DNA from: Strigamia acuminata
Taxonomy: Eukaryota > Arthropoda > Chilopoda > Geophilomorpha > Linotaeniidae
Reading direction: 5' to 3'
DNA: 64,000 nucleotides
NCBI GenBank assembly: GCA_949358305.1
Contig: OX442322.1
Location: forward strand, 10,230,001-10,294,000
Shown here: positions 4,413 through 43,979 of the stretch, piece by piece
Position numbering within the stretch: position 1 is the first letter of the stretch
How the letters are laid out: every line of letters begins with the position of its first letter
The notes under the pieces: model-generated
Database searches by the model: none
Told to the model about the DNA's origin: nothing
What the model saw: the letters and a program-made list of their open reading frames with translations, nothing else
Position numbers and translations under genes: made by a program

Positions 4413-5870
4413 AGCCCCAGAAATTTAAAAAGTCCGGGTGGGATAACCTTACACTCCAATTCCGAGTCCAACTCTTCTCCACACGGTAACGAGGAATATT
4501 CTCCCGGCCGAAAGAACCAAGTAGCCAGCTCTTGACTGCATTTCCAGATCCTTCCTTTCGAGAAAGCATGGTCTTTGATGATTTGGGAAGGTTTGAGTTG
4601 ACTGTGCAGAAACAACTTGACTTTTCATCTGAAATTTGACTCAACTTCTTGCGATGGACGACTTCCGATGCTTGAGTTGCGATTAGGACCGGATTTTTTG
4701 ATTTGTTCCGGATAATTTGGCCTTGTTCTACCGAGAGACACGATACAGCTGCGCTAGTATCCGAATATTCATCCAAATCGTGGTTTGTGTTTCCAATCGA
4801 ACCATTGGCAATCCAACCAAATATCGTGCGAGACAAACCAAATGTTTTGCTAATTCGTTTTCTTCCACAGAGAGCAACTTTCCAAAAGTTGTCACCTCCT
4901 ATTAGGAAGTCAATTTCATCCGTGACTGACGGATGCGGTTCAGCTAATTCCAATCCAAACGCCAATATTTTCTTGATAGTTTCGGCGTTTGTCAGTCCAC
5001 TGACTGTGGGCAACGCTTTAGCTTTTAACGCATCAAATGTAAGCTTTTGATTTCCGTGACGTGACTGTAGCTCTACTGGAATTACGTCGTAATTAGCGGG
5101 AACCGCATGTTCATCATCCAATCGCTTCATCATGTATGCTACGGATCCCTTCTTTGTCATCCGAAGGCATTCGACCAATTTGGTAGATACGTACGACCGG
5201 TGACTCCCGGGGTCAAGAAGACCTCGGACGATAACTGGCTCCTTGTTTTTTCGGATTAATTGAGCTGAAAATACCATCAACTGAATACTCGATGCAACTG
5301 CTAAAGATACATTTGCAGAGACACTGGATTGGGTGGGAATTTCTTCTTTCTTTTCAGCAGGTTTTTCTTCCCCTTTTTGACAAATTATCGTGTGATGTCG
5401 ACCACCACATTTCCTGCAACTGAAGCTTACCAAGCAGTCTTTCGCCGAATGATTTCTGCGGAGGCAATTAAAGCATAAGCGCTTTTGTTTAGCGATTTCT
5501 GTTCGTTCCGCAACAGTAAGAGAAGCGTCGCATTTCGCATTATAATGTGATCCGTCACAAAAAACGCAGACGATTTTTCCCGACCCCATTGGACCGGATG
5601 GTTTAGGTTTGTCCTTCCCTGACTGTGAGGTGAAACAGGTTGACATGGTGCCTTTTCGTGCAAAATCCGACTCTTTCGGTGACTTTTCTGATTTTTCTTG
5701 TTTTTTCTTAGATGCTTTTGCTTTCAGAACCGTTTCTTCAGCGAGCTCAGCAATCCGCAGTTCTTCCGCAACAAAGTCCACAAACTTTAGTACGTTGTCC
5801 ATGCGACCCTGGTTGGTGCGGTGGTAACGTTTCGCTATGTCAGGTGGAAACTTTTCCAGAAGGTCAGGCA
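4413..5870 (-). pseudogene. Element D Gag-Pol fragment: Gag C-part, zinc knuckles, protease
   Basis: Open reading frame through the whole segment, entered from the right after element E and broken at 4412 by element F. In order it shows the end of the DUF1759-type Gag region (FPPDIAKRYH), three knuckles (CVFCDGSHYNAKC, CFNCLRRNHSAKDC, CRKCGGRHHTIIC; about 5565 down to 5400) and a protease segment with GLLDPGSHRSYV near 5200-5235. Further left are the A17-type features (LIGGDNFWK, FGWIANGS). RT, RNase H and integrase are not in the window. The frame runs into F's LTR and stops there, so the residues after about 4412 are not part of the gene. Inactive here because of the insertions; no internal stop is seen in the segment itself. 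Confidence 0.88.
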
Positions 5871-6642
5871 TGTTTCTAGCAGTGCTTTGTGGCCGTGTGG
5901 CACTCTAGAAGACAATCGGAAATGGTTATAACAAATAAACCTACTTACTAAAACTTGTGATGAGCTCCAAAAAAGATGATGCATTGCAGGAGAAATCCTG
6001 CTTGAAATCCCTGCAAAGTGGCCTAACAAGTGTCTGGAAGAACTCACCACTAATGTGTTAAATAACACATAAACAAACCGAATTTATTGTAAAGTTAACA
6101 TCTATCAAAATACACAGAAAAAGAGAGGAGAAAATTACATATCTTAACCCTAGAAAACTACATAACAAGTCAGAGTAGTTGCTGCGCAACCTACAACAAT
6201 TAGAGCAGCGGCTCTTAGCAACGAGTGGCAACAATCGCTCGCAAGAGGCGAATTGTCCCTCTAGTGACAAAATGATAAAGCGTATACAAGAAAATACACA
6301 GTTTCGAGTATAAAATCATTACAAAAGGCACAAAACCGTAATAAATTAAGACAAAGTGTTTCAAATAAATGAACTAACCTAGGAACTAACAGCAGCGACT
6401 CTTTGGACGAATCCAAGCAGTAAAACTCCAAAGAATCAAAGAAAAGATACAAGATTACCTTAAAAAAGACAGCTTAAATCAGGTAATTCACCGCTCCCAC
6501 TTCACAAACTACACGAAATTCATTTAACATTTAGCCAAAACTTAAGCTGCACTATTAACTAAATACAAACTTAAATAATTGATCAATTAAAGCAAATCCG
6601 CTATTGCGATAGCAAAAATCCATGTTGCACGTGCTCGCAACA
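5871..6642 (-). repeat. E 3' LTR
   Basis: Starts (minus strand) at 6642 with TGTTGCGAGCACGTGCAACA and ends at 5871. The internal sequence just before it reads as a pyrimidine-rich run followed by GGCCGGCAACGC on the minus strand. Confidence 0.93.
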
Positions 6643-16427: not shown

Positions 16428-16445
16428 CTTGCTGTGCACAGCAAG
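16428..16445. other. 18-base perfect palindrome in the LARD internal region
   Basis: CTTGCTGTGCACAGCAAG. It recurs in the other LARD copies that cover this part (F, L, and reversed in E and M). In P the outermost C is T, which as RNA still pairs with G. A candidate dimerisation or structural element; function not shown. Confidence 0.5.
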
Positions 16446-17861: not shown

Positions 17862-17880
17862 CACTCTTTGCAAAAGAGTG
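17862..17880. other. LARD stem-loop CACTCTTT/AAAGAGTG
   Basis: CACTCTTTGCAAAAGAGTG here, with loop GCA. The L copy at 50506-50524 and the E, M and P copies have loop GCG with the same 8-bp stem. Confidence 0.55.
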
Positions 17881-18793: not shown

Positions 18794-19566
18794 TGTTGCG
18801 AGCACGCGCAACATGGATTTTTGCTATCGCAATAGCGGATTTGCTTTGATTAATCATTAATTTAAGTTTGTGTTTAGTTAATAGTGCAGCTTAAGTTTTG
18901 GCTAAAGGTTAAATGAATTTCGTGTAGTTTGTGACGTGTGAGTGGTGAATTACCTGATTTAAGCTGTCTTTCTTAAGGTAATCTTGCATCTTTTCTTTGA
19001 TTCTTTGGAGTTTTACTGCTTGGATTCGTCCAAAGAGTTGCTGTTGTTAGTTCCTAAGTTAGTTTATTTATTTGAAACACTTTGTCTTAATTTATTACGG
19101 TTTTGTGCCTTTTGTAATGATTTTATACTCGAAACTGTGTATTTTCTTGTATACGCTTTATCATTTTGTCACTAGAGGGACAATTCGCCTCTTGCGAGCG
19201 ATTGTTGCCACTCGTTGCTAAGAGCTGCTGCTCTAATTGTTGTAGGTTGCGCAGCAACTACTCTGACTTGTTATATGTTTTTTCTAGTCCTAAGTAACGT
19301 TGATTTTCTCCTCTCTTATGTGTAATGTTTTGATAGATTTTAACTTTACAATAAATTCGTTTTTGTGTGCTAACTTGAGCACAATAGTATTGAATTGTCC
19401 CAACATGTTCACAGCTCACTTTACAGGTTTCACATCAAGGTTTTTTCCTGTAATGGACTTTCTTCTTTGGGATTCTTCACAAGTTCTGGTAAATAGGGTT
19501 ATTTATTTTAACCATTTTCAAATGTCTTCTAGAGTGCAACACGGTCTTCAAGCACTGCTAGAAACA
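18794..19566 (+). repeat. A 3' LTR
   Basis: Same length and sequence as 13452-14224 as far as compared. Followed by CCAA and the resumption of B's LTR at 19571. Confidence 0.95.
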
Positions 19567-19570
19567 CCAA

Positions 19571-19811
19571 TGTGTCCTGAGTAGAGAACCATTTTTCCCA
19601 GACTGGCCAATGGATCAGCAAGCACTTGGATACCATGCAAAAGTGTTTCCAACAGTTAAACCTTCATGTAACAGGAGATTTTGAGGCGAATCAAGTGCAT
19701 TTCCACACGGTACACGTACGAATTTCACTATACGATCGTTTGAGTTTGTTGGCGGGAGTTTCGAATCGCCACATCTCAGTTCTTCTCTGTTCCTGTTGAC
19801 TGACCGCAACA
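19571..19811 (+). repeat. B 5' LTR, second part
   Basis: Matches 27262-27502 of the 3' LTR and ends GACTGACCGCAACA. With 12223-13451 it gives 1470 bp, the length of the 3' LTR. Confidence 0.95.
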
Positions 19812-20721: not shown

Positions 20722-23700
20722 ATGGAGAGAGATAGAGATACAGAAACTTCCGAACGCGATTTACTCACTGTGGAGCAAATTGAAATACTAGAGACCAGGT
20801 GGGAAGCACAACTTTCATCTCTCAACGACTTGCTGTCTTTGTCGGAGAAGACGAGCGATCCAGGAGAGTTAGAAGCGCTTCTGCTTACTGCAAATCTGAA
20901 AGAGACACGCGTTGTAAATGGCCTGAACGAGCTTCAAGTCTACTGTGAGCACGCGTTTTACCTTGAGAGTGTCGAGAAACTGGAATCATCACAAACGAGA
21001 GTGGAACTTCTCCGAAGAAGGTGGGAGGTTTCAAAGCGGTCTCTTCCAACCCTTGGAGGAAGACTCAACATGTCTACAGTTTCCGGTGCAAATACATCCC
21101 TGAATACTTCGACTTCTTTCCGCAAGAATTCCAAGTTGCCCAAACTTGAATCTGTAAAGTTTGACGGGGAGATAATCAAATACAAGACGTTTAAGAGCAA
21201 CTTTGAAACTTCTGTTCATAATGACCCAGATCTGAGCAGTGTTGAAAAGTTGCAATACCTTCAAACTATGTGTACAGGTGAGGCTGCGGCTTTGATTTCC
21301 ACCTTTCCTTTGATCGAGGAATCCTATGACTTGGCACGGGAAGAACTTGATCGTAACTATGGCGATGAGGATGCGCAACAGACGGCTCTCATCCAATCCA
21401 TTCGAGACTTGAAGACTGTTTCAAGCATATACCCGACAAAGGTGTTGAAAGCAAATTTGACGAAAATTTCTTCAACAATACGACTTCTAGAGCAACTGAA
21501 GATTCCTGTACGGACATCTGGTGCATTTCTGATGCCGGACATTCTTAGCAAGTTTCCTGCTCCAATGACTTTGCGTTTTTACCAAGTCCATGGACTGTCT
21601 TGCAAGAACATTTTGACTTTGCTTGACTTTTTTCAAAAGGAAGTAGCTATGGCAGAACGCACTGAAGCTGTTTCTCCATCTGAAAAAGCAAAGAAGGAAA
21701 AGTCTGAAGTTGAAAAGGCTAAAGTTAAAGGATCCATGACGACTTGCACCGCGACGCAAGACTCAAAATCGTCTTCAAGCTCCAAAGTGAAGACAGAGTC
21801 GAGACAAGAGAACAAGTCTGCGAATTCCAAGGCACTCAAGTGCATTTTTTGTCAAGAAGACCATTTGAGCGGTTCTTGCAAAAAGGAGTTCGAAATCAAT
21901 GCAAAGATTGAATTGATAAAGAAAAACAGACTTTGCTTTAATTGTTTTCGAACAGGTCATCGCGTTGGTGACTGCAAAGTGAAGTTTTCCTGCAAGCATT
22001 GTGGCGGAAGACACCATTCAACCATTTGTAAGAAGTCTGAGGTGAACAATTCTCCAAGTCCGACAGAGAAACCCAAGGAGTCGCAAGTGACCACACACGT
22101 CTCGTGCGCGATATCCACTTCTCTTCAACTTATGATTTTTGTTGCTGACCTCAAAACCAAATCTGGAGGTTCACACCACATCAGAGGCATGATTGACCCG
22201 GGTAGCCATCGGTCATTCATTACAACTGAACTGGTGAACCGACTAAAACTGAAGAAGTGCGGCAGTATTTCTGCGACCACACAACGGTTCAACGATTCTA
22301 TGCCTGCTGCCACTGATTACGACGTATACAACGTTACTCTTCAAAGCAAGAATGACGCACAAAACTTCAAATTATCAATGCTTTCAGTGGAAAATTTGCC
22401 GAAAGTGCAGGGCATTTTGAATGCATCGGTAATAGAAAAGGTGAAGAAGCTTAATCTTGAACTTGCCGAAGATCTGCCAGCCAAGACATCTCAAATAGAC
22501 ATTCTTTTGGGAGTTGATGCTTGGTGGAAAGTCATTAAAGATGGCAAAAAGAAAATCAACGACGATCTTGGACTCATAAATACGTTATTTGGATGGGTGC
22601 TTATCGGAGCAGCCGGAAATACGGATTTATTCGAAGATGAAGCTGATTTGACTTCATGTTGTAATACTTGCAACATTGAAATCCATGAACAATTAGACAA
22701 ACTTTGGAACTTAGAGGCAATTGGGATTAATGCTGGTGAAAAAGAATCCGATTTCACAAGAGATCGATTTGAAGCCACGACAAAACGTCTCGATGACGGA
22801 AGATACGAGGTGATGCTGCCTTTTAATGGACAAGAAACTGACTTGGACTCAAACTGGGAGCTCGCACTTAACCAATTAGCCAACACATTGAAGAGAATCG
22901 ACTCAAATGACGATTATAAGAAGCGATATGACGACTCAATGTGGCAGTACATTGAAGAAAACCACGCTGAGGAAGTTCCAACTGAAGACCGGTTCCTAAA
23001 GAAAGGAATATATAACATTCCACATCATCCAGTGATCAAAGAGGACCGGGAAACAACGAAATTCAGAGTCGTATTCAATGCGTCGTCTGCGAAAAAAGGA
23101 AAACGCTCATTAAATGACTGCCTTTTTCCTGGACCATCTTTGAATCCAGATTTGATATTGGTGATGGTCAGATTCAGATTGTATTGCATTCCAATCATTG
23201 CTGACATTAAACAAGCATTCCTCCAAGTAATGATAAACCCCACACATAGGAACTTTCTGCGTTTTTTGTGGGTCTCGAGGCAATATTTCAAGAACCCCTA
23301 TTCGTGGAGAAATTTGTGGAATAATATTATGATTTTGAGGATGATAGTCGTACCATTTGGAGTTATTTCCTCTCCTTTTCTCCTGTGCGCAACAATTCGG
23401 AAACAAGCTGATCAATACAAGGAGACACATCCGAAAGAAGTTGATGCACTGGACGCCGGGATATACATGGATGATTTAACTTCTGGAGGTGATCACACGA
23501 CAGACACAACAAAGCATTGTGAAGAATTAAAAATGATTTTGGATGACGGGAAACTCCCACTTGTTAAATGGGCGACACCCAATGAAAAGGTTTTCAATGA
23601 CATCAAAGAAAAGGGATTTCACATGAGAAGTGACGAATTCTGTGAACAGGGAGTGATAAAAATGCTTGGAATCTTATGGGACACGCAAGAAGACGTCCTC

Positions 23701-25974
23701 ATGTTCAGGATTCCACAAATGGACATTATTCCGAACACAAGACGTGAAGTTCTCTCTTTGGTAGCCTCTATTTTCGACCCGATGGGACTCATTTCTCCAG
23801 TCGTTTTGAAAATGAGACTCCTTCTTCAAGACATTTGTCTACGTACAAAGAACTGGGACGGAAGAATTTCGGACTCAGAAAAGCAAGAGATTGACGAATG
23901 GAGTCGAGACATCCAGAAATTAAAAGACTATAAGGTACCTCGATGGTTAGAAACCTATTCTAATGAAGAGTTGAGTATTGAAGTTTTCTGTGATGCCAGC
24001 ACTAAAGCCTTTGGATGTGCAATTTTCATCGTCAACAACAAAGGAAAAGGAACTTTGCTACTCAGCAAATGTAGACTAGCCCCTGCAAAAAAGATTACCT
24101 TGCCTAGACTTGAATTAACTGCTGCGGTCGTTGGTGTACGGATGTGTCAGTATTTGACAAATAACTTTCTGCCAGGTTATCCAATCAAAACCATTCGATA
24201 TTTTTCTGATTCCACCATAACTTTGGCTTGGATCAACTCGAAGAAAAATGAGTGGAAGCCTTATGTTTCTAACCGCGTTCAGGAAATTGTTTCATCGTCT
24301 GACGCAAGCCAATGGTCACATATTCCGACAGAGTTCAATCCTGCAGATCTACTTACACGACCACACGATGCAAAAACATTAATGACAAATAAACTTTGGT
24401 GGAACGGCGTGGACGTTTCTAAAATCGAAAAAGTCGAGGTCGTGCAAGAAAAACTACCCGAAGAAGAAAAAAGAATTGTGGTTATGAATGTTCAAGTCAA
24501 AGAGACATTTATAAGCAAATTTTTCAAAAGATATCGCAACTTCAACCGTCTAGTTAGAGTATTTTCGTATATTTTGCGCTGGAAATCTCATCGTTTTCGC
24601 GGCGAAGATCTCGCGCAACGCGAAATGGAATCCAGTCAAATTAGGATTCTTCAATTTTCACAAGAAATCTACTTTCGAGAAGAGATCGAAGCTGTGAGAA
24701 ACAAGACTGAAGTTGAGAGATACTCCCCTTTGAAAAATTTTGAATATTTCTTAGATGAGGATGGACTTTTACGTTTGCGCAGCAGACTGAGATTGTCTTT
24801 GCTTTCGTTTGACGAAAAATACCCGATTCTTTTGCATAACGAAAGTTGGGTAACTAGATTAATTATTCGCAAGACTCATCTTGATCTCATGCATGGAGAT
24901 TTGAGTGAAACACTTTACCGAATTCGTGAGAAATTTTGGGTTCTCCGAGGACGCAGGACCATTCAAACTGTGATAAGAGAATGTTCCGTTTGCAGAAGGA
25001 CTAAACTTGCAAGAAATAATCCGTCTACTGGAGAATTACCGAAAGAAAGAGTAACCCCAGCAGCTTCTTTTCAACACACCGGAATCGATCATTTAGGACC
25101 TATTTTTGTGGGAAAGGACAAAAAACGATTGAAGAAAACATACATTTTATTATTCACTTGTATGGTTACACGAAGTTTACATCTCGAAGTGTCCGAAGAT
25201 TTATCCACTGAGAAATTCTTATTGGCATTCAGACGATTTTGTGCTCGTTACGGTTGTCCAGCAAAAGTCTTCTCGGACAACAGTAAAACCTTTGAAAAAG
25301 GAAGTACACAAATTCAGTCATGGGGAAAACTGATTGGCCGTTCGGACATAAAAACATTTCTGTCTGAGAAAAGGATTGTATGGACATTTATTCCTCCGCT
25401 CTCACCGTGGATGGGAGGAGCTTGGGAGAGACTAGTCCGTTCAGTAAAGGATAAATTGCGGAAAACTTTATTGAGACACACTGTGGATTTAGAAAATTTA
25501 CAAACCTTGGTTCTTGAGATCAGCTCCGTGTTGAATTCACGACCTTTGTCGTATGTACACGAAAATATAGACGGCGGCAGAATCCTTTCACCTAAAAACT
25601 TTTTAACGGGAGGTATGCCGAAATACATGATCAACAAGACCTTGAATGCAATCAAGAAAAGTGACCTTCGAAAACTCGACAAGAAAAGAAGACAGTTCAT
25701 TTGGGATTTTTGGAGTATATGGAAACACAGTTACTTGATGCAGTTAAGAAACTTTTATGAGACTAAAGGAGATAAATCTTTTCAAAACCCCAAAATTGAT
25801 CAGATTGTTCTTCTTGAAAAGATGGGAACCAACCCTTACTTTTGGCCTCTTGCCAGAATAAAACAAGTTTTTCCTGGTGATGATGGACTAATTCGCATCG
25901 TTAGTGTTGTGCTTCCCGATGGAAGAGAGTTGCGTCGTTCTGTAAGGCATATTAGAGCCCTTGAACTTGATTGA
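20722..25974 (+). CDS. BEL/Pao Gag-Pol polyprotein, intact (1750 aa)
   Basis: One uninterrupted frame starting at an ATG that precedes a coiled Gag N-terminus. Domains in order: DUF1759-type Gag (about 130-290; LPKLESVKFDGEI, EKLQYLQTMCTGEAA), zinc knuckles CIFCQEDHLSGSC (374), CFNCFRTGHRVGDC (405) and CKHCGGRHHSTIC (424), then a protease with GMIDPGSHRSF (Asp 492). RT has ADIKQAFLQV (Asp 828) and YMDD (915-918). RNase H has the FCDAS Asp near 1091, then LPRLEL and SDST. An integrase zinc-binding region lies near 1386-1420. The integrase core has Asp 1456, Asp 1519 and Glu 1569, and a DUF5641-like end has GLIRIVSVVLPDGRELRRSV. All polymerase and integrase catalytic residues I looked for are present. 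The protease triad is DPG rather than the usual DSG/DTG, as in D and I. No frameshift or stop separates Gag from Pol. Enzymatic activity is inferred from the motifs only. Confidence 0.96.
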   Translation: MERDRDTETSERDLLTVEQIEILETRWEAQLSSLNDLLSLSEKTSDPGELEALLLTANLKETRVVNGLNELQVYCEHAFYLESVEKLESSQTRVELLRRRWEVSKRSLPTLGGRLNMSTVSGANTSLNTSTSFRKNSKLPKLESVKFDGEIIKYKTFKSNFETSVHNDPDLSSVEKLQYLQTMCTGEAAALISTFPLIEESYDLAREELDRNYGDEDAQQTALIQSIRDLKTVSSIYPTKVLKANLTKISSTIRLLEQLKIPVRTSGAFLMPDILSKFPAPMTLRFYQVHGLSCKNILTLLDFFQKEVAMAERTEAVSPSEKAKKEKSEVEKAKVKGSMTTCTATQDSKSSSSSKVKTESRQENKSANSKALKCIFCQEDHLSGSCKKEFEINAKIELIKKNRLCFNCFRTGHRVGDCKVKFSCKHCGGRHHSTICKKSEVNNSPSPTEKPKESQVTTHVSCAISTSLQLMIFVADLKTKSGGSHHIRGMIDPGSHRSFITTELVNRLKLKKCGSISATTQRFNDSMPAATDYDVYNVTLQSKNDAQNFKLSMLSVENLPKVQGILNASVIEKVKKLNLELAEDLPAKTSQIDILLGVDAWWKVIKDGKKKINDDLGLINTLFGWVLIGAAGNTDLFEDEADLTSCCNTCNIEIHEQLDKLWNLEAIGINAGEKESDFTRDRFEATTKRLDDGRYEVMLPFNGQETDLDSNWELALNQLANTLKRIDSNDDYKKRYDDSMWQYIEENHAEEVPTEDRFLKKGIYNIPHHPVIKEDRETTKFRVVFNASSAKKGKRSLNDCLFPGPSLNPDLILVMVRFRLYCIPIIADIKQAFLQVMINPTHRNFLRFLWVSRQYFKNPYSWRNLWNNIMILRMIVVPFGVISSPFLLCATIRKQADQYKETHPKEVDALDAGIYMDDLTSGGDHTTDTTKHCEELKMILDDGKLPLVKWATPNEKVFNDIKEKGFHMRSDEFCEQGVIKMLGILWDTQEDVLMFRIPQMDIIPNTRREVLSLVASIFDPMGLISPVVLKMRLLLQDICLRTKNWDGRISDSEKQEIDEWSRDIQKLKDYKVPRWLETYSNEELSIEVFCDASTKAFGCAIFIVNNKGKGTLLLSKCRLAPAKKITLPRLELTAAVVGVRMCQYLTNNFLPGYPIKTIRYFSDSTITLAWINSKKNEWKPYVSNRVQEIVSSSDASQWSHIPTEFNPADLLTRPHDAKTLMTNKLWWNGVDVSKIEKVEVVQEKLPEEEKRIVVMNVQVKETFISKFFKRYRNFNRLVRVFSYILRWKSHRFRGEDLAQREMESSQIRILQFSQEIYFREEIEAVRNKTEVERYSPLKNFEYFLDEDGLLRLRSRLRLSLLSFDEKYPILLHNESWVTRLIIRKTHLDLMHGDLSETLYRIREKFWVLRGRRTIQTVIRECSVCRRTKLARNNPSTGELPKERVTPAASFQHTGIDHLGPIFVGKDKKRLKKTYILLFTCMVTRSLHLEVSEDLSTEKFLLAFRRFCARYGCPAKVFSDNSKTFEKGSTQIQSWGKLIGRSDIKTFLSEKRIVWTFIPPLSPWMGGAWERLVRSVKDKLRKTLLRHTVDLENLQTLVLEISSVLNSRPLSYVHENIDGGRILSPKNFLTGGMPKYMINKTLNAIKKSDLRKLDKKRRQFIWDFWSIWKHSYLMQLRNFYETKGDKSFQNPKIDQIVLLEKMGTNPYFWPLARIKQVFPGDDGLIRIVSVVLPDGRELRRSVRHIRALELD

Positions 25975-26032: not shown

Positions 26033-27502
26033 TGTTGCAAACAACGTGGAATAATTTAGAAACTACTTTTATTGCCAATTTGTGTCTGAATAAATGTTTC
26101 CAAAGTGTGTTTTATTTTGCATAACATTTCAGTTTTTATTTACAGGATTTTTGCATTATTAAAATGTTTTTAGTGCTTTCAGATACTGATGTTTGATGAA
26201 ATGTGATATTCCATTGTTTATTGCATTTATTTCTAGTGTTTATTGCGTGATTTTGTGTTACTTTATTCATTTTCTATCAATTTGTGTGATTTCGGGTGAA
26301 ATTTGGTGCATTTGTCGTTGAACAGTTCACTAGTGTTATTGACGTGACGTCATATTTCAAGTTCTAGTTCGGTTTTTGTTCAAACTTCTAACCTTCCGTT
26401 TGGACGGAATTTTGATGGTTAGAATTGTTTTTGACATTGTTTTAGACTAATTTGGGGGTGATCTGTTGATTCGTGCACTCTAATTTCGTCCCGGAACAGC
26501 CGTTTTTCTGCTACGAGCGATCGTGACGGACCCCGCATGTGCGTTGCCGTCCAAGATCGTTTCGTTCGGTTTGCGGTTGATTTCAAGTGTTCTTTCATTA
26601 AAAAGTGTCTTGTTTTGCGGGAAATTACATTCCCTGAACTTATTTACTTATTTCAAAGTGTTTACATAAGTTATTTCTTGTGTTGAAATTCAAACCTTGT
26701 GTTTTGCCGCCAATGTAGAGTTTACCGGACGCCATGTTGGATTTTGCCGATGATTTGTAAATCTTTCATGTCGCTTTGTTTTTATATCTCAATTGGTGTT
26801 AGTACTATTTAGTTTTAATGTATTTCAATGCAAAATCTTTACTTATTTGGTTTTGTGTGTGACTTTGAATTCAAACTTGATGATTATGTCATTTTGCTTG
26901 TCTTTGATTGGTTAGGCCCAATTGTCTGCCTAGCGATCACTGTTTTCGCTGTTTTCTCAGTGTTTTGATTAACGAATTTTGTTGTTACGATAGACTTTAT
27001 TATTCCTGAGTTTTTTGTGCTCATTTTGAGCTATTACACATTATTTTTAATACATTTCTCGTAATTTGTTGTCTTTGCTTGAAATTGCATTTCCTCCGTT
27101 TCCATGTCAACGGAGTATTTCTTTATTGTAATTTGCCAACAATTGGTTTGGCGTGTGCCATCCTATTATAATGTGTAATTATTGAGTTGCCATTTTATAT
27201 TTGATTAAAATAGTCGTGTTAATGTTAACTCTTGTATTTTCTGCTTTTGACCCATTTCCAATGTGTCCTGAGTAGAGAACCATTTTTCCCAGACTGGCCA
27301 ATGGATCAGCAAGCACTTGGATACCATGCAAAAGTGTTTCCAACAGTTAAACCTTCATGTAACAGGAGATTTTGAGGCGAATCAAGTGCATTTCCACACG
27401 GTACACGTACGAATTTCACTATACGATCGTTTGAGTTTGTTGGCGGGAGTTTCGAATCGCCACATCTCAGTTCTTCTCTGTTCCTGTTGACTGACCGCAA
27501 CA
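26033..27502 (+). repeat. B 3' LTR (1470 bp)
   Basis: TGTTGCAAACAACG head and CCGCAACA tail, uninterrupted, followed by target duplication GGCG. It serves as the empty-site reference for the insertion of A. Confidence 0.96.
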
Positions 27503-33103: not shown

Positions 33104-34274
33104 GCTTTAAGGTTATTTGTGGTTTAGTGGTGTCTTGTATTGGTGTTTAAGGTAGTCCACAGGTGTCTTGGGTCGCTGGATGGGCGTTGGACATCGTTTG
33201 TGAGCGTTTGCGAGCGTCGGGCGTGAGCGTACGCCTTGCGACGCCTCTCGTGGTCGTGTGGGTCCTGCAAATGAGTTGAATTGGTCGGGTTTCAATGCCC
33301 AAGCACTGGGAAAGCTGTACTGACCGTTCTAAGACGAAGATCCATCGTTGAGAAGGCCTGTGAGTCGCTCGCGACCTTGTTTGGCTCCATTCACGTCATT
33401 TTAGCAGTTGCATGGTCGCCATCTTGGATTTGGTGCTGCACTGTTGCCCTGTTATTATTTCTTTTGGGGTTTTGAGGAGACCTGGACATAGGGAATATTT
33501 ACTAGTTATTGTTTGTATAAATTACCAATATTAAGGGTTGTTAATCTAAGCTTTTACCTTTGTTATTGTATGGTTGTTACGGGTTAAGGTTTGTGACACT
33601 TTGCGCCCTCTTTTGGTGGCAATTGGGGTTTGGGCTCAGCATTGTGTTTTGAGTGCAGTTAATGTTAGTTTTAGCCTTTGAATTATCTGTTAAGTTTAAG
33701 TGAAGTGCTGTTTGCACAGGTCATACTGTTTTCAAGGTGTTAGGTTAAGTTTTGCCTTTATTTATGTTAAGTTTGACATCTGTTGTCTATATACGGAAAC
33801 CTTGTTGGCACTATTGTTATTATTCAAATCTGTATTGTTTGGTCACTGACATTTATTGTAATCAGGTGACCAGTTGTTAAGAGTAGGTTGCTAAAGAAGC
33901 AACTCAGTTGTTATCAGTTGTTAAGTATTAAATCCAGTTGATATTTTTCCTCCTTCTTTGGATAATTTATTCCTGGGTTTCTTTTACTTCAATAAACATG
34001 ATGGCTTGTGAGTAGAGAGCTTTGCCTGCTCTCCTCCTCCCTGGGAGCCCGGAATTTCTACCCAGCAGCTAAAGAGGTTTTGCCAATCACTTCATCTAAA
34101 TGCAGTTAGGCCTAGTTTCATGCAGTCAGGCCTAATCCTTCTTCAAGTTAGGCTTGGGCTCAGAGAAAGGATTTCAGCTTGTTTCATCAACCACTATACA
34201 GTCTCGGGCGGTTTCCAGAGTTTGGTGACCAATTCGCCAGTCCTCCCCTGTGAGATCCAAGGTTGTTTGCTACA
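33104..34274 (+). repeat. H1 LTR, 3' part
   Basis: From about 33132 it is the reverse complement of the H2 LTR (43540 down to 43120, and 36508 down to 35799), ending TTTGCTACA. Its first part lies beyond element G, off the window. The first 28 bp do not align well with H2, so the exact G/H1 junction content is uncertain. It lacks the insertion of element I and so supplies an empty site. It interrupts the Gag of H2 at 34275. Solo LTR or full element cannot be decided. Confidence 0.8.
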
Positions 34275-35798: not shown

Positions 35799-36508
35799 TG
35801 TAGCAAACAACCTTGGATCTCACAGGAAAAAACTGGCGAATTGGTCACCAAACTCTGGAAACCGCCCGAGACTGTATAGTGGTTGAAGAGACAAGTTGAA
35901 ATCCTCTCTCTGAGCATAAGCCTAACTTGAAGAAGTGTTAGGCCTGACTGCATGAAACTAGGCCTGACTGCATTTAGATAAAGTGATTGGCAAAACCTCT
36001 TTAGCTGCTGGGTAGAAATTCCGGGCTCCCAGGGAGGAGGAGAGCAGGCAAAGCTCTCTACTCACAAGCCATCATGTTTATTGAAGTAAAAGAAACCCAG
36101 GAATAAATTATCCAAAGAAGGAGGAAAAATATCAACTGGATTTAATACTTAACAACTGATAACAACTGTTGCTTCTTTAGCAACCTACTCTTAACAACTG
36201 GTCACCTGATTACAATAAATGTCAGTGACCAAACAATACAGATTTGAATAATAACAATAGTGCCAACAAGGTTTCCGTATTTCTACAACAGATGTCAAAC
36301 TTAACATAAGTAAAGGCAAAACTTAACCTAACACCTTGATAACATTATGACCTGTGCAAACAGCACTTCACTTAAACTTAACAGATAATTCAAAGGCTAA
36401 AACTAACATTAGTTACACTCAAAACACAATGCTTAGCCCAAACCCAATCACCACCAACAGAGGGCGCAACGTGTCACAGTTTTAACCCCTTAACAACCAT
36501 GCAATAAC
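35799..36508 (-). repeat. H2 5' LTR, downstream part
   Basis: Ends (minus strand) at 35799 with GGTTGTTTGCTACA. Matches H1 in reverse between about 33560 and 34274. Confidence 0.87.
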
Positions 36509-37866
36509 TGTTTCTGGCAAGGTCGCAGGCGACAACCAGGCCAGAAGGAGGGGCGGCAATACTTGACTGCTGCTTGGCTAAAATTGATACACAGAAGTTG
36601 GCCAAAGACTTGAAGAAATGCAAACACTGGACTTGAACTTGCTGCTTCACATGATGATCTGCCACTGGTGAGTTCAAGGAGGAGGAAGGAGGATTTTTCT
36701 ACTCACTGCACATTGCTTTCTGGTTGTATAGAGAAATGAGACTTGGAGAGAAATAAAAAGCAACCATTTTATTCTCTAAATTCTTAACAACACTACTACA
36801 ATTGAATCACGAGGATATTACAAAGAAGTCACACTTTAACAATAATAAGAAACAACAAGTGTAACTATCTCCACATTGTATAAGGACACTTGCACTTAAA
36901 GTTACAGAGGTCTCTAAGTGCTTGTAAAGAGAAATAAGTACTGCTGGCACAACAAAACTACCGTAGAAGTTAATAGTTGAAAACACATAAGCCTAACAGC
37001 AAGTATTTGACATTAAATGCAAAAGTATACATTAACAACAGTCTCTAACCACAATGCTCGTTGAGAACTAAATTATTCACTCTAAAACACACTGAACAAC
37101 TCATAAAATAGAGAAAAGAATAAGTAAAGACATTTTAGACCAATGAGCTGGCAACTTTACAGTAAGTGCAGAAGTTAAGTTATAAATCAACACAGATAAA
37201 TCTTAAACTTAACACTTTTACATTGCATAATAATTAAGTGATTAATTATTAATCAGAACCCACAAAAACTCTTTGGGATTAAACATTTTCTCCTCTCTTT
37301 ACAGATACAAGTAGACCACTCCCACAGTAATGGCCGACAATGTAAACAGAGATCACTTGCAGGAAGATAGAAAGGCTTGAAATTAGCTCACTAGACAGGC
37401 TACACACAATCTAAGTTAACAAAACGCTTAATTGGTTAGTAATATACAGAAAACAAACAGAAATTGATTGAAACAGCTTAAAACTGATAATAACATACAT
37501 TTCTCATTCTAGTACCCTTTTGCTGTCTGAGAGCATCATTACACCTTGTCACTACATTGACAATAGTGGACTGGAAACAGGAAAACACTTGGAAACATCA
37601 AAACATGCATAACACAGGTAAACAAGATAGAAAATAAATTCTAAGTGGATAAATAACTAATGTAAAAACTCTTTTCTTCCCAGATTTATCCGGTCAGATC
37701 AACCAGTACTGAGAAATTCACTCAAACTAACTCAAAGAAGACTTATATTCAAATAAGTGTCTAATTAAATTCCCAATCTAAGATAAATATTAAAAACCCT
37801 TTTTAATAATTCCAGATGACTAATTTTTAAGACGTTTAGCAGCTTTCCTTTATGTTGCTAGCAACA
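36509..37866 (-). repeat. I 3' LTR
   Basis: Minus strand starts at 37866 with palindrome TGTTGCTAGCAACA and ends CCAGAAACA at 36509. The sense strand just before it reads TTTCTTTTCGCCGGCAATCTA, again pyrimidine-rich plus CCGGCAA. Confidence 0.93.
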
Positions 37867-37901
37867 TAGATTGCCGGCGAAAAGAAAGTGCGAACAACCC
37901 A

Positions 37902-40900
37902 TCATTTAGTTCGATTACTTCTGGTCTTTGATGATAATATTTGGGAGACCTCTTTCACCTTTTCGTATTCCACTCTGGGTGGCATGATTCTTTGACGGAT
38001 CAAATTTGGTATCCACGGAGGTATTCTTCGGTTGACAATCATACAACTAAGTCGAATAATTCCGTTGATGATTTTCCTTTTCGTCTCTAGGGACTTCATG
38101 GGCTTTGAGAAACATACTCGACAGGTTGGTTTGTATTTGTCGATCCCTCCTATCATCTTGACTCGGGTTTCGTGCGAAATTCGTCTTGAAAATTCAGCTT
38201 TATCTCCGCAAAAATAACATTTTGCTTGTAGTTTCACAACAGACTCGGCTAGTGGAACTAACTCGGATATCTGATCAAATGGCTTCCTCTTGAAGTCGAC
38301 GTCTAATGCGGCGACTATTACCTTTTTCTTTTGCTCAGCCATTTCATTTGAAAAAGTAAAAATGTCGGGAAAAAACTGTCCTTCGTCAATTCCGATTGTC
38401 TTCACTAATTTCGTTTTTTCCACAGCATTGGTTAGGCTACTGGTCGCGATTGCTTCTCGTCGATGACCGTCGTGGGTCACGACTTCGGTTTTACTGTAAC
38501 GATCGTCATTGGAGTGTTTAATTAGCAGGGACGACGTCTTCTCTTCCTTTTCTAAAAGCTTCAATAACTTGGTCGTTTTCCCCGCATACATTGGACCAAT
38601 GATGAGATGAATTCCCTTTTGATTGGTTGACAAATCAATTTTCTTTTTCCAGAAATTCAGAATCACGTTTCCACTCCATCTCACGATTGCACACAATTTG
38701 GGTAAACTGGGCACTTGGTTTGTAAGTAATTCGACGTTCTTTCTCCCTGACTCTAACTGATTTCGCCCTCGTAATTCCGGCTTCATGTCCGAGCTTGGAG
38801 TTCTGTTGACCAATCCTCCATCCTTGAACGACTTTTTCGTTTTTTGGAGGGTGGTGTCCAGTTCCTCTTTCTCCAGACCACTGGAGAGGCTCGCGGCAAA
38901 ACAAGAAGGTGTGACGTCTGTCTGTTTATTCACACCGGGTTCGCCATTCATGTTGGGCAGTGATTTCGGAATTAATTGGACTATTTTGTTTTCGTCATTT
39001 TCAGGTTGATTTGAGATCACTTCTTCTTTGGACTCGACCGCCATGCAAGAAATGTTGCACGCTGCCATGTTTTCTTCAAGCGGGTTGTTTGGTTTCAGTC
39101 GACCGTTTAGAATCCACCCAAAAATTGTCTCCATTAATCCCAACTCGTCGTTGATTTTTCGGCTTCCACCTTGACAAATCTTCCACCATGCGTTGCTTCC
39201 TAATAAGACGTCAATGTCTTCCGATTCTGACGGATGTATCTCAGCCATCTCAAGTCCGAGTGATTGGACTTGCTTTATGGCTTCTGCTCCAATTATCCCT
39301 TTGACTTTCGGGAGTGTGTCGGTTTCTAATGCAAGGATTGATGTCTTTTTTGTTCCGTGTCTTGATTGTAGTTCGAATCTAAAGACATCATGTGTCGTCG
39401 GAACTGGCTTTTTGTTGAGCAGACACTGTGTCATCGTGTGTAGTGTCTCGATCTTTTGCATCCGGAATTTATTTACTAGTCTCTTCGTGACGTAGGAGCG
39501 ATGGCTTCCTGGATCTAGTAATCCGCGGACGGGGTACATGTCTCCATTTTTCTTCACAAAAAGAGCAGTGAAGACCATCAGTTGAATCTCCACCGACTCG
39601 GTAAGCGATACATTAGTAGACACGTTTTCTTCTTTCGGTGTAATCGCTTTTTCTTTTTTGTTTTTGTTGCAGATCGATGTGTGATGTCTTCCACCACACA
39701 AGCGACAACAAAACTTCACGGTACATTCTTTGGCTGTGTGGTTATATCTCAAGCAGTTGAAACAAAGTCGTTTCTTCTTCACTATTTCGATCCTCGCTGG
39801 TACATCGAGATCCGCATCACAATTTGCGTGTGCGTGATCACCATCACAATAAGCGCAGGCGGGTTTGCGGTTTGGATTTGACTTGGAATTCATACTCAAT
39901 TTTCCATTCTCGGAAGTCACGAATGAGGACATGGTTCCAGTTGGTCTTTCTCTTGTTTCCTTTGAAGTTTTCTCAAATTTTTCTGACTTCTTCAGATGAG
40001 CGCGCTTAAGGAGAACGCTTTCTTCCGACAATTCAGCCAGTTGTATCTCGGTTGCTACGAAGTCCAGAAAAACGTTAACATCATCAACTTTTCCTTGATG
40101 CTTTCGGTAAAAACGTTGGGAGATCTCCGGTGGAAATTTTCTAAGTAGTTCTGGAATAAGGTACGTTCCAGTAGTGTCAACTGACACAGACAGTTGCGCC
40201 ATGGTCCGGACAGCAGATGCCAATGACGTGAATAGAGCTTTAAGTGGCTCGATTGGGTAGAGATCGAAAACGGGTTTCGACTCCCTAATCATCTTTGAAA
40301 TCGCATTTCTCTGCGTGTTTTCAGATCCGAATAGACTCTCTAATGTATTTTTCGCTAATGGGTAGGCGTCATCAGTTATTGGGTACGACTTGATTGCGGA
40401 TTCTGCAGCCCCAGTGCAGCATGATCTCAGATATATAAGCTTTTCCACGTTCGAAAGCTCCGTGTTCTGATCAACTGCTGATTCGAATAAATTCGCAAAG
40501 CCTCTATATTCAGTTGCATCGCCACTAAATTTGGCAATGTCGGTTTTCGGCAATCTCGTGTTTCTCCTAGCTAAAGCGGAAGTCTGGTTTAAACTGGAAT
40601 TCTGTCCCGGATGGGAACCAAATTGCCCTGCCATTTTTCCAGACACTTTTGCTCTTTGTTTCAATAAATTAACTCTGGTTCTAATGTCTTCAATTCGTTG
40701 AAGCCCCGCTAAATAGTCCTCTCTTTTTGACTCGTTTTTAAGATCTTTCAATTCATCGGCGAGATCACTCAATTGCTGGTCAACCGTTATTTGCATGGCT
40801 TCCAGCTCTCCTCCGTCTAGAATGTTGACTGAAGATCCCAGCAGATCCTCGGCTCCTTGAGCCTTTGCTTTCCAAATGACCTCCTTTTTCTCGAGATCAG

Positions 40901-40919
40901 CAGCGGATAATGTAGCCAT
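37902..40919 (-). CDS. Gag-protease-thymidine kinase fusion protein of element I (1005 aa)
   Basis: ATG at 40919 (an in-frame GTG three codons earlier is not needed). Order: Gag N-terminal helices and DUF1759-type core (about 1-300; LPKTDIAKFSGDATEYR, EKLIYLRSCCTGAAES, YLIPELLRKFPPEI). Knuckles follow: CAYCDGDHAHANC (355), CFNCLRYNHTAKEC (386) and CRLCGGRHHTSIC. Then an A17-type protease region with GLLDPGSHRSYV (Asp 469), DVLLGSNAWWK and FGWILNG, and a low-conservation linker (about 620-765). A type II thymidine kinase domain occupies about 770-940, and a basic tail ends the protein. The tail segment IINGIIRLSCMIVNRR resembles the DUF5641 end of BEL Pol (GLIRIV in element B), suggesting that RT, RNase H and integrase were replaced between protease and the Pol end. 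The frame is uninterrupted and shares gene structure with B and D, so this is one fused gene, not a neighbouring host gene. The expected reaction is ATP-dependent phosphorylation of thymidine to dTMP; activity and processing from the polyprotein are inference. Confidence 0.95.
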   Translation of the reverse strand: MATLSAADLEKKEVIWKAKAQGAEDLLGSSVNILDGGELEAMQITVDQQLSDLADELKDLKNESKREDYLAGLQRIEDIRTRVNLLKQRAKVSGKMAGQFGSHPGQNSSLNQTSALARRNTRLPKTDIAKFSGDATEYRGFANLFESAVDQNTELSNVEKLIYLRSCCTGAAESAIKSYPITDDAYPLAKNTLESLFGSENTQRNAISKMIRESKPVFDLYPIEPLKALFTSLASAVRTMAQLSVSVDTTGTYLIPELLRKFPPEISQRFYRKHQGKVDDVNVFLDFVATEIQLAELSEESVLLKRAHLKKSEKFEKTSKETRERPTGTMSSFVTSENGKLSMNSKSNPNRKPACAYCDGDHAHANCDADLDVPARIEIVKKKRLCFNCLRYNHTAKECTVKFCCRLCGGRHHTSICNKNKKEKAITPKEENVSTNVSLTESVEIQLMVFTALFVKKNGDMYPVRGLLDPGSHRSYVTKRLVNKFRMQKIETLHTMTQCLLNKKPVPTTHDVFRFELQSRHGTKKTSILALETDTLPKVKGIIGAEAIKQVQSLGLEMAEIHPSESEDIDVLLGSNAWWKICQGGSRKINDELGLMETIFGWILNGRLKPNNPLEENMAACNISCMAVESKEEVISNQPENDENKIVQLIPKSLPNMNGEPGVNKQTDVTPSCFAASLSSGLEKEELDTTLQKTKKSFKDGGLVNRTPSSDMKPELRGRNQLESGRKNVELLTNQVPSLPKLCAIVRWSGNVILNFWKKKIDLSTNQKGIHLIIGPMYAGKTTKLLKLLEKEEKTSSLLIKHSNDDRYSKTEVVTHDGHRREAIATSSLTNAVEKTKLVKTIGIDEGQFFPDIFTFSNEMAEQKKKVIVAALDVDFKRKPFDQISELVPLAESVVKLQAKCYFCGDKAEFSRRISHETRVKMIGGIDKYKPTCRVCFSKPMKSLETKRKIINGIIRLSCMIVNRRIPPWIPNLIRQRIMPPRVEYEKVKEVSQILSSKTRSNRTK
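38100..38612 (-). other. Thymidine kinase (TK1-type) domain inside the element I protein
   Basis: Walker A GPMYAGKTTKLL begins at residue 775. THDGH follows, then the catalytic-type motif IGIDEGQFFPDI (Glu 846), VIVAALDVDFKRKPF, LVPLAESVVKL, and two Cys pairs CYFC (901-904) and CRVC (933-936) for the structural zinc. The substrate-lasso segment MIGGIDKYKP lies between the pairs. All landmarks of the family are present, and the AALD/RKPF and IGGIDKY forms are those of animal TK1 rather than bacterial enzymes. The length of about 170 residues fits the family core. Confidence 0.95.
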
Positions 40920-41457
40920 AATACGCACCGAGAAATTGAGAATTCAAGGATCAGTTCAGGATTCAAAATCAACTTAACTGACTAAATTGGTTAACAAGAA
41001 ATTGTCTAATTCTTTTACACTCTAGGATTTACTGAACACACAAAAACAGGATGGATATACACAAGCTGTTAACAGGATTGAAACACACGAGATGTTAACA
41101 GGATTGGCACACACGAGATGTTAACAGGATTGGCAAAATAACCCCCAAAATTCAATAATTAAAGGTAATTGAAAATTCTCTTATTTTTACAATTGAGTTT
41201 CTGACTAGATACTCGTTTTAATTGGTATACCAACACTAAAGCTTGGTATTATTCACTAATTCACTGGATATTCTCTAAATTCCACAAACTGGAATCGAGA
41301 ATTTATTCAAATGGTTAAGACTTAAACTTCTTCTCCCCCCAACTACACCAGTTTCTAATCAAAAACTCCTTTGAAATGATTACAGCAGCAAATTCGGATA
41401 TTATTCTATTTAAATAATAATTCTTAATAATTATTTCTTCAAATCTTCTTGTAGGAT

Positions 41458-41472
41458 GTATATTGCGTTGTG
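41458..41472 (-). promoter_or_regulatory. I leader motif resembling the complement of the tRNA-His anticodon arm
   Basis: Plus strand GTATATTGCGTTGTG, one base different from the LARD version, 292 bp from the LTR. Confidence 0.58.
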
Positions 41473-41739
41473 TTTGGAATTGATTGTCGTGCAGGATCGC
41501 TCGTACTCTCGAAGCCTTGCTTGATCCAAGTTGAAAAACATCTTGACCATCTTGACAATTTGAGAATCCAACTTGAAAAACCCACTTTTTTGCCTGTGAA
41601 AGGCGGACGAGAGCATACACTTCACTGTAGTGGCACAGCTTCAATGGCACTTTACACATAAAAGCTTTGCACAGCTTGAGAACAAAACCCACTGATGAAT
41701 TTTGCAGCACACATGAAGGTCCACTGAGATAACTGGAAG

Positions 41740-41761
41740 AAATCCTTGGTTCACGGTACCA
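41740..41761 (-). other. I primer binding site, tRNA-His-like
   Basis: Minus strand TGGTACCGTGAACCAAGGAT then TT, three bases after the LTR. Very close to that of H2. Confidence 0.65.
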
Positions 41762-41764
41762 AAT

Positions 41765-43113
41765 TGTTTCTGGCAAGGTCGCAGGCGACAACCAGGCCAG
41801 AAGGAGGGGCGGCAATACTTGACTGCTGCTTGGCTAAAATTGATACACAGAAGTTGGCCAAAGACTTGAAGAAATGCAAACACTGGACTTGAACTTGCTG
41901 CTTCACATGATGATCTGCCACTGGTGAGTTCAAGGAGGAGGAAGGAGGATTTTTCTACTCACTGCACATTGCTTTCTGGTTGTATAGAGAAATGAGACTT
42001 GGAGAGAAATAAAAAGCAACCATTTTATTCTCTAAATTCTTAACAACACTACTACAATTGAATCACGAGGATATTACAAAGAAGTCACACTTTAACAATA
42101 ATAAGAAACAACAAGTGTAACTATCTCCACATTGTATAAGGACACTTGCACTTAAAGTTACAGAGGTCTCTAAGTGCTTGTAAAGAGAAATAAGTACTGC
42201 TGGCACAACAAAACTACCGTAGAAGTTAATAGTTGAAAACACATAAGCCTAACAGCAAGTATTTGACATTAAATGCAAAAGTATACATTAACAACAGTCT
42301 CTAACCACAATGCTCGTTGAGAACTAAATTATTCACTCTAAAACACACTGAACAACTCATAAAATAGAGAAAAGAATAAGTAAAGACATTTTAGACCAAT
42401 GAGCTGGCAACTTTACAGTAAGTGCAGAAGTTAAGTTATAAATCAACACAGATAAATCTTAAACTTAACACTTTTACATTGCATAATAATTAAGTGATTA
42501 ATTATTAATCAGAACCCACAAAAACTCTTTGGGATTAAACATTTTCTCCTCTCTTTACAGATACAAGTAGACCACTCCCACAGTAATGGCCGACAGAGAT
42601 CACTTGCAGGAAGATAGAAAGGCTTGAAATTAGCTCACTAGACAGGCTACACACAATCTAAGTTAACAAAACGCTTAATTGGTTAGTAATATACAGAAAA
42701 CAAACAGAAATTGATTGAAACAGCTTAAAACTGATAATAACATACATTTCTCATTCTAGTACCCTTTTGCTGTCTGAGAGCATCATTACACCTTGTCACT
42801 ACATTGACAATAGTGGACTGGAAACAGGAAAACACTTGGAAACATCAAAACATGCATAACACAGGTAAACAAGATAGAAAATAAATTCTAAGTGGATAAA
42901 TAACTAATGTAAAAACTCTTTTCTTCCCAGATTTATCCGGTCAGATCAACCAGTACTGAGAAATTCACTCAAACTAACTCAAAGAAGACTTATATTCAAA
43001 TAAGTGTCTAATTAAATTCCCAATCTAAGATAAATATTAAAAACCCTTTTTAATAATTCCAGATGACTAATTTTTAAGACGTTTAGCAGCTTTCCTTTAT
43101 GTTGCTAGCAACA
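41765..43113 (-). repeat. I 5' LTR
   Basis: 1349 bp. Lacks nine bases present in the left copy; otherwise the same throughout the parts compared. Confidence 0.93.
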
Positions 43114-43979
43114 TAGAAAAGGTAAAAGCTTAGATTAATAACAACTAATATTGGTAAATATACAAACAATAACTAGTATATATTCCCTACGTCCAGGTTC
43201 CAATAAAACCCCAAAAGAAACAATAACAGGGCACCAGTGCAGCACCAAATCTAAGATGGCGACCATGCAACTGCCAAAATGACGTGAATGGAGCCAGACA
43301 AGGTCGCGAGCGACTCACAGGCCTTCTCAACGATGGATCTGCGTCCTAGAACGGTTAGTACAGCTTTCCCAGTGCTTGGACATTGAAACCCGACCGATTC
43401 AACTCATTTGCAGGACCCATACGACCACGAGAGGCGTCGCAAGGCGTGCGCTCACGCCCGACGCTCGCAAACGCTCACAAACGATGTCCAACGTCCATCC
43501 AGCGACCCAAGACACCTGTGGACTACCTTAAACACCAATACAAGTTAGTATAAATTAAATTACCAGTGAAACAAGCACTAAAACTGCAATTGTGCTTATT
43601 TCAAGTTCTCCCGTTTCCCAGCTCACTTATGCTATGGCGGCCATCTTGCCGATGCACGCCTATCTCTCTCACAAGTGAACTGGAAACAGGAGAAAACTTA
43701 TAAATACTAGAAATAACACAAACAAGTGAAAAAGACACATAAAACAATGCCAAAAGACTAAAAACACAACTTTCAAACATTCCAGGTGTGGCAGGCGAAG
43801 TGACAACCCCCTTGAACTTCCAGGATCGTGACAACAAGGCAACAAACCAACTGGACATGTCAGATATGAGTTGCAAATCTATTCAAACTTGACAACAAAA
43901 TTAAAAAGCCTTTTCTCTCTTTCTGAAGATAAACAACGTGAAATCTTCAGATCTTTTTGTTGCGTTCTTGCTCGCAACA
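43114..43979 (-). repeat. H2 5' LTR, upstream part
   Basis: Minus strand starts at 43979 with TGTTGCGAGCAAGAACGCAACA-type head (7-bp stem, 8-base loop). From about 43540 down to 43120 it matches H1 in reverse, and element I interrupts at 43113. Confidence 0.86.

What the first reader, a model, noticed from the sequence alone, without database searches (positions are those of the whole stretch)
37902..40919. LTR retrotransposon encoding a thymidine kinase fused to Gag and protease
Seen: a single 1005-codon frame bounded by near-identical LTRs holds BEL/Pao Gag, three zinc knuckles, an A17-type protease and a complete TK1-type domain with Walker A, the DEGQFF Glu, lasso and all four zinc cysteines. 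Known: reverse transcription needs dTTP, TK1 is low in non-dividing cells, and some retroviruses and retroelements carry dUTPase for a related reason. I know of no described LTR retrotransposon with a thymidine kinase. Inference: the element captured a host TK1 transcript and may raise dTTP locally in its particles or cell.
Basis: partly seen in the sequence, partly recalled or inferred. Interest (0 to 1): 0.95.

Follow-up and report, generated by a model that had tools for sequence, protein, structure and literature searches.

The report
Thymidine-kinase-carrying, helper-dependent LTR retrotransposon
A retrovirus-like jumping gene in an invertebrate genome has lost its own copying enzymes and carries in their place an intact-looking thymidine kinase, an enzyme that makes a DNA building block; it has about a hundred related copies or pieces, and selection has conserved the kinase.

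Summary
On the minus strand, 36509-43113 is an LTR retrotransposon whose LTRs differ by one 9-bp indel and no substitution. Its single ORF (37902-40919) encodes BEL/Pao Gag, zinc knuckles, protease, then a TK1-type thymidine kinase. It is not an assembly join: 99 A/B rows, 85 in near-full frames. Families A and B share only 57% of kinase residues, yet 23 of 27 recalled functional positions agree. By domain the kinase (dN/dS 0.08-0.19) is constrained almost like Gag-protease, while the linker drifts (0.38-0.85): the kinase is selected within the element. Against necessity, a third family (F) amplified although the copy read has lost its kinase core. The capture story needs change: intron-bearing host TK1 exons group with human TK1; the element kinases sit beside another intronless multicopy TK lineage. 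Copies cluster in a few blocks, satellite-bearing where checked, with a young autonomous BEL family, a plausible helper. Likely role: thymidine salvage for reverse transcription, inferred, not shown. I found no LTR retrotransposon carrying a thymidine kinase in the open library searched.

The parts
41765..43113 (-). 5' LTR (element orientation)
   Evidence: TGTTGC...GAAACA; 1349 bp; differs from the 3' LTR by one 9-bp gap, 0 mismatches; ends read
36509..37866 (-). 3' LTR
   Evidence: 1358 bp
41748..41761 (-). putative primer-binding site TGGTACCGTGAACC, 3 bases after the 5' LTR
   Evidence: read. A 24-base PBS-leader pattern has 95 genome matches at up to 2 mismatches, control 0; 77 of the 95 have an A/B kinase row 2.5-4.5 kb downstream, 18 do not
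37867..37900 (-). purine-tract-side end preceding the 3' LTR
   Evidence: resembles the same site of family B and of the autonomous BEL (compared by eye)
37902..40919 (-). single ORF: Gag - protease - linker - thymidine kinase - tail
40104..40529 (-). BEL/Pao Gag domain (DUF1759)
   Evidence: residues 134-275 of the GTG-started ORF
39669..39857 (-). three zinc knuckles (by eye)
39102..39521 (-). protease region, DPGS motif to FGWILNG; homology to autonomous gag-pol ends shortly after
38109..38612 (-). TK1-type thymidine kinase domain, where autonomous elements have RT-RNase H-IN
   Evidence: PF00265 E 2.6e-54; phmmer to human TK1 E 3.8e-43; model and Foldseek
37905..38102 (-). C-terminal tail, part of it shared by families A, B and F
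20722..25974 (+). autonomous BEL gag-pol ORF (1750 aa), candidate helper; its LTRs (12223-13452 plus 19567-19811, and 26033-27502) are identical over the 1232 and 245 bp compared, TSD GGCG
4413..5871 (-). remnant of sister family F (gag-pro part)

Best explanation
The element belongs to old, recently mobile families of helper-dependent BEL/Pao retrotransposons in which a TK1-type kinase took the place of RT, RNase H and integrase. Its RNA makes one Gag-protease-TK polyprotein, which assembles with, or alongside, polyproteins of an autonomous BEL element that supplies RT and integrase. The kinase, held in or near the particle, phosphorylates thymidine to dTMP; host kinases finish dTTP, easing reverse transcription where thymidine nucleotides are scarce. 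Shown here: architecture, absence of pol, copy number, recent insertion, purifying selection on the kinase, co-location with a young autonomous BEL family. Inferred: catalysis, packaging, helper identity, benefit through dTTP.
For: Replacement of pol: homology to autonomous gag-pol covers residues 7-628 and stops before RT. Families A and B share one order over the whole ORF (51% identity); their gag-pro (56-57%) and kinase (55-58%) have diverged alike. Selection by domain, pairs window-L021, window-L036, L001-L002, L001-L005: gag-pro 0.075, 0.105, 0.071, 0.069; kinase 0.181, 0.191, 0.116, 0.077; linker 0.852, 0.621, 0.377, 0.816 (the last pair on 4 linker changes). At 27 positions recalled as functional in human TK1, A1 and B2 agree at 23, against 96 of 172 overall, P 5e-4. 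Frames: 47 of 54 A rows and 38 of 45 B rows lie in frames of at least 991 aa (recounted). Recent movement: L021, L035 and L037 have identical LTRs; L035 and L037 have 4-bp TSDs. Helper: the window's autonomous BEL has identical LTRs, a 4-bp TSD and a similar LTR start, PBS context and pre-LTR sequence; of 61 rows of its family at 96% or more, 50 fall in the six intervals that hold 77 of 99 A/B rows.
Against: Family F: the one copy read lost the kinase core, and 19 rows share its 892-aa frame, so the kinase is not indispensable for spread, unless A or B supply it in trans. L034 has P to L in the P-loop within an intact frame. Two close pairs gave kinase dN/dS of 0.45 and 0.55, on 8 and 9 changes. 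The tail is poorly constrained (1.1 in one pair). No catalytic, expression or particle data exist. The autonomous element closest by gag-pro (L130, 46%) is not the co-located one (38%), so the helper is uncertain. LTR, PBS and pre-LTR likenesses are partial and judged by eye.
Confidence: 0.6

Rival explanations
1. The kinase fold is kept as a structural module (oligomerising or RNA/protein-binding part of the Gag fusion), and catalysis is irrelevant.
For: TK1 enzymes form tetramers (recalled). Family F, in the copy read, keeps a P-loop-region remnant and the tail but not the catalytic core, and still amplified.
Against: In A1 and B2, 23 of 27 recalled active-site and zinc positions agree against 56% overall; K32, D58, R60, DEGQF, Y181 and the four cysteines are the same in 5 of 5 A/B rows compared. 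A domain kept only for shape would not need that.
Confidence: 0.17
2. Passive cargo: a cellular gene picked up by chance, as in acute transforming retroviruses, amplified before decaying.
For: Same layout as gag-onc proviruses (gag fused to a cellular gene, pol lost; recalled). Many copies are near-identical and young.
Against: A-B synonymous sites are saturated while kinase dN is about 0.35; L001-L002 has dS 1.09 with dN/dS 0.116; the linker between protease and kinase is far less constrained.
Confidence: 0.07
3. The kinase benefits the host or the helper (a source of dTMP for others) rather than the element's own reverse transcription.
For: Copies lie in the same blocks as an autonomous BEL family, a layout like that reported for a gag-contributing partner of a wheat retrotransposon (PMC11302176, abstract seen).
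Against: The genome has its own intron-bearing TK1 exons. About a hundred scattered mobile copies are not what a host gene looks like.
Confidence: 0.12
4. Assembly artefact or chimeric join.
For: None found.
Against: 54 A and 45 B rows on many contigs; TSD-flanked insertions; old relics with stops.
Confidence: 0.01

Closest known systems
BEL/Pao LTR retrotransposons (Belpaoviridae)
   Same: Gag (DUF1759), knuckles, protease, LTR termini, 4-bp TSD where one is seen
   Different: no RT, RNase H, integrase or DUF5641; a thymidine kinase sits in their place
Non-autonomous gag partners of autonomous LTR elements (RLG_Quinta with RLG_Cereba, PMC11302176, abstract seen)
   Same: contributes Gag, lacks pol, shares signals and genomic niche with an autonomous family
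   Different: a BEL element in an animal; carries a metabolic enzyme; centromere location only suspected here
dUTPase-bearing retroviruses and LTR retrotransposons (PMC4531489 and PMC5408684, abstracts seen; PMC6431247, passages seen)
   Same: accessory thymidylate-pool enzyme encoded by a retroelement
   Different: a dUTPase acts on dUTP and accompanies pol; here a salvage kinase, with pol gone
Acute transforming retroviruses (gag-onc; recalled)
   Same: cellular gene fused to gag, pol lost, helper-dependent
   Different: long-lived family under purifying selection; metabolic rather than signalling cargo
Cytosolic thymidine kinase TK1 (PF00265; human 2wvj, 1xbt)
   Same: fold, P-loop, DEGQFF, zinc cysteines
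   Different: fused behind a retroviral-type Gag-protease

Membership tests
BEL/Pao LTR retrotransposon | homologous Gag-protease | tested here: met
BEL/Pao LTR retrotransposon | LTR pair with short TSD | tested here: met
   LTR pairs in 7 of 8 A/B copies put through (L034 was skipped because its P-loop did not fit the script's motif). TSD CAAC (L035), GCGC (L037) and, by eye, TTTG (L023); none at the window copy and L021; not visible in L011 and L036
BEL/Pao LTR retrotransposon | RT, RNase H, integrase in pol | tested here: not met
   one long ORF between the LTRs with none of them in Pfam, and no room elsewhere. So: a non-autonomous derivative, not a full member
Helper-dependent LTR retrotransposon | cis signals matching an autonomous partner | tested here: inconclusive
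   similar LTR start, PBS context and pre-LTR sequence, not identical
TK1 (type II) thymidine kinase | complete PF00265 domain with P-loop, DEGQFF, zinc cysteines | tested here: met
TK1 (type II) thymidine kinase | phosphorylates thymidine | not testable with these tools
   no assay
dUTPase-bearing retroelement | dUTPase domain | tested here: not met
   absent from the Pfam scan of the ORF; an analogy only
Recent copy of the canonical host TK1 gene | closest to the intron-bearing host TK1 | tested here: not met
   host exons 39% to A1, 55% to human TK1; 81 columns, exons joined by inferred splice sites; an early, diverged copy is not excluded

The most novel reading that the evidence does not exclude
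A retroelement lineage that gave up its own polymerase and specialised in supplying nucleotide precursors: its Gag-TK joins particles of an autonomous BEL family living in the same satellite-bearing blocks and feeds reverse transcription for both, a metabolic division of labour between retrotransposons, with a kinase-less family (F) cheating on it.
Probability: 0.3. Interest if true: 0.93.

Novelty: new variant of a known kind. Interest (0 to 1): 0.83.

Why it matters
dNTP supply limits reverse transcription (established knowledge), and dUTPase is the accessory enzyme usually discussed. A thymidine kinase kept by selection inside a retroelement would show that elements can supply their own precursors. 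It gives a natural test of whether dTTP limits retrotransposition in animals, and a case of an element that keeps a metabolic gene but not a polymerase. The location with satellite and a co-resident autonomous family also makes it a candidate system for centromere-associated retrotransposons in an animal.

Tried and rejected
Assembly join: rejected. Bacterial or viral origin of the kinase: the viral loci (8), the prokaryotic loci kept (80 of 549) and the phage rows shown (5 of 54 records) are at most 40% identical, against 48% to human TK1 and 48-55% to groups C, D and E of the same genome. So identity alone does not separate human from D; the placing beside C, D and E rests on the tree. A viral source outside these collections is not excluded. 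Autonomous TK element: the 1118- and 1999-aa frames at C130 run through stretches of N. C1:37500691 and C1:45922195 are decayed B-like and A-like relics; C3:20609796 shows only the motif and looks like chance. The repeats that hold the C, D and E kinases were not resolved: Pfam showed no transposase on the 8 ORFs tried. tRNA and Rfam scans of the window: nothing. The six genomic intervals were drawn after seeing the A/B positions, so 77 of 99 is descriptive; 2 of 150 top-scoring DUF5641 rows lie in them, but those are the best 150 of 897 candidates and leave out the window's own autonomous family. Dropped before the A/B count: one second piece of the C127 copy and 46 rows of groups C, D and E. 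Dropped: 89 rows at 82-92%. Corrections to my notes: entry 5 says that the PBS pattern occurs only on TK elements, but 18 of 95 places have no A/B kinase near; entry 6 says 21 full F rows, but one search shows 19 in 892-aa frames.

Full report
What is there. The window lies in an unnamed 237.5-Mb genome in 157 contigs. Its mitochondrial COI needs TGA as tryptophan and reads open under tables 5, 9 and 14; judged by eye the conserved lysines come out only under table 5, so I take the host for an invertebrate and do not name it. On the minus strand at 36509-43113 is an LTR element: LTRs of 1349 and 1358 bp with no substitution and one 9-bp gap, and one ORF of 1005 codons. Pfam on the ORF gives DUF1759 and a complete thymidine kinase and nothing else above a family cut-off. 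Gag-protease aligns with the autonomous BEL ORF in the same window (36%, residues 7-628) and the match stops before RT. The 845 bp before and 35 bp after the ORF cannot hold RT, RNase H and integrase. So pol is missing and the kinase stands in its place.

Copies. A search of the genome with the kinase profile scored 150 of 205 candidates, all above the Pfam cut-off, 149 without a stop inside. A search with the window's kinase-and-tail piece gave 146 rows: 55 of the window's type (A; 54 used, one being the second piece of a copy), 45 of a second type (B, 51-56% identical in that piece), 46 others. In frames of at least 991 aa: 47 of 54 A and 38 of 45 B. LTR pairs were compared in 7 copies: identical in L021, L035 and L037 (A) and in the 950 and 718 bp seen of L011 and L023 (B); 99.64% in L036 (A3); the window as above. 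L035, L037 and, by eye, L023 have 4-bp TSDs. The window copy and L021 have none, and both carry TCTA before the 5' LTR, the same four bases that precede the 3' LTR. I cannot explain that.

The kinase. phmmer to human TK1 has E 3.8e-43; the AlphaFold2 model (pLDDT 88.2, pTM 0.83) matches TK1-type structures first. At 27 positions that I recall as functional in human TK1, A1 and B2 agree at 23, against 96 of 172 overall (P 5e-4); A1 equals human at 22 of them, B1 at 25. Exact genome patterns for IDE[G/A]QFF and for the P-loop each occur 174 times, reversed-pattern control 0; 100 places of each were listed, and the counts include other TK groups, relics and host exons.

Selection. Nei-Gojobori estimates by domain, in the order window-L021, window-L036, L001-L002, L001-L005: gag-pro 0.075, 0.105, 0.071, 0.069; linker 0.852, 0.621, 0.377, 0.816; kinase 0.181, 0.191, 0.116, 0.077; tail 1.125, 0.228, 0.322, no change. 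All pairs but the first cover only part of gag-pro. Some close pairs rest on few changes: L021-L037 gave 0.45 and L035-L037 0.55. A-B synonymous sites are saturated. Kinase and protease are thus held, the linker is not. Window and L021 differ by about 8% over the second half of the linker and the first half of the kinase, and by 0-4% in the other bins but the short last one (7 of 130), which looks like recombination between lineages.

Contrary evidence. Family F, first met as the remnant at 4413-5871, has 31 of the 88 rows, 19 of them in 892-aa frames; the other 57 are A, B or autonomous. After the protease the one F copy read (L129) keeps a P-loop-region remnant (GPMFLGKK) and the shared tail, but not the catalytic core; that the other 18 rows with the same frame length lack it too is inferred. 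F's gag-pro joins the A/B side only weakly (69/75); the shared linker and tail are the better reason. L034 has P to L in the P-loop. C1:37500691 and C1:45922195 are relics.

Origin. In a tree of 24 rows, six A/B kinases form one group (92/81) beside C, D and E kinases of the same genome (86/82), human TK1 outside. An intron-bearing TK1 gene lies at C9:8.319 Mb (splice sites inferred from 431 bases). Its 81 available residues group with human TK1 (100/99) and apart from A/B; in that short tree the prokaryote rows fall on the A/B side, so it does not say where A/B attach. A diverged, apparently decayed TK1 copy lies at C9:7.4147 Mb. One capture into a BEL element, from a TK lineage other than the canonical gene, fits best; an early copy of host TK1 or a viral donor is not excluded.

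Where it lives. 77 of 99 A/B rows lie in six intervals making 4.5% of the genome, 20 on small contigs, 2 elsewhere; of 150 top DUF5641 rows 2 lie in those intervals. L023 sits inside a 140-bp satellite, an array of it starts 2.2 kb beyond the LTR end of L011, and the L035 insertion splits the same satellite sequence. A 29-base piece of it occurs 22,192 times; 100 places were listed, and the first on the 67-Mb contig C1 is at 65.22 Mb, inside the A/B block. That is centromere-like, not proof of a centromere. The window's autonomous BEL family shares the niche: of 61 rows at 96% or more, 50 lie in the intervals, 6 on small contigs, 5 elsewhere on C1 and C11. Its window copy has identical LTRs and TSD GGCG and is a good helper candidate, though L130, at C3, is closer by gag-pro.

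Literature. In the held open library I searched thymidine kinase with LTR retrotransposon (30 papers, 25 listed, none on such an element by title or abstract start), with transposable element, captured and gag (9 papers), 'thymidine kinase domain' with retrotransposon (0), with Bel-Pao (0), nucleoside kinase with LTR retrotransposon (0), and two wider searches (24, 12 listed; 11). Seen: abstracts of PMC11302176, PMC5408684 and PMC4531489, passages of PMC6431247 and PMC7593179; the rest as listings. Subscription papers and repeat databases were not searchable, so novelty is likely, not proven.

Verdict. A real, recently mobile, helper-dependent BEL/Pao derivative with a selected TK1 domain. The salvage mechanism is the best-supported reading; catalysis, packaging and helper identity remain to be shown.

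Noticed in passing
G000 loci L019, L020, L025, L028, L029, L030: A 190-aa intronless TK ORF (group E) sits in near-identical dispersed repeats of at least 9.2 kb (L020 and L030 99.98% over 9183 bp); 40 rows. Element type unknown; no Pfam transposase on the ORFs tried.
   Followed up: partly
L012-L016, L022, L026, L027 (group C); L017, L018, L024 (group D): Two more intronless TK ORF groups in large repeats, several of C on small contigs; C and E kinases are 79% identical with dN/dS about 0.12.
   Followed up: partly
window 4413-5871; L129: Family F: gag-pro element sharing linker and tail with the TK elements; the copy read has lost the kinase core; 19 rows in 892-aa frames.
   Followed up: partly
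window 43114-43117 and 36505-36508; L021: The window copy and L021 lack a TSD and carry TCTA before the 5' LTR, the same bases as before the 3' LTR. A 94% similar uninterrupted stretch lies inverted at 33134-34274.
   Followed up: no
L023 6098-9901, L011 8404-9901: 140-bp satellite with 427-bp higher-order period; one 29-mer of it occurs 22,192 times, candidate centromere repeat.
   Followed up: partly
window 13453-19566: Another LTR element (773-bp LTRs, TSD CCAA) nested in the 5' LTR of the autonomous BEL, with similar LTR ends and PBS.
   Followed up: no
G000:C1:37653244 and C3:4133399 (L130): Autonomous BEL elements with unusually long frames (2105 and 2043 aa against about 1750), closest to the TK and F families by gag-pro; in L130 part of the extra length is upstream of the first Gag-like ATG.
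   Followed up: partly
L131 (C9:7414600-7415700): Diverged, apparently decayed TK1 copy of canonical animal type.
   Followed up: no
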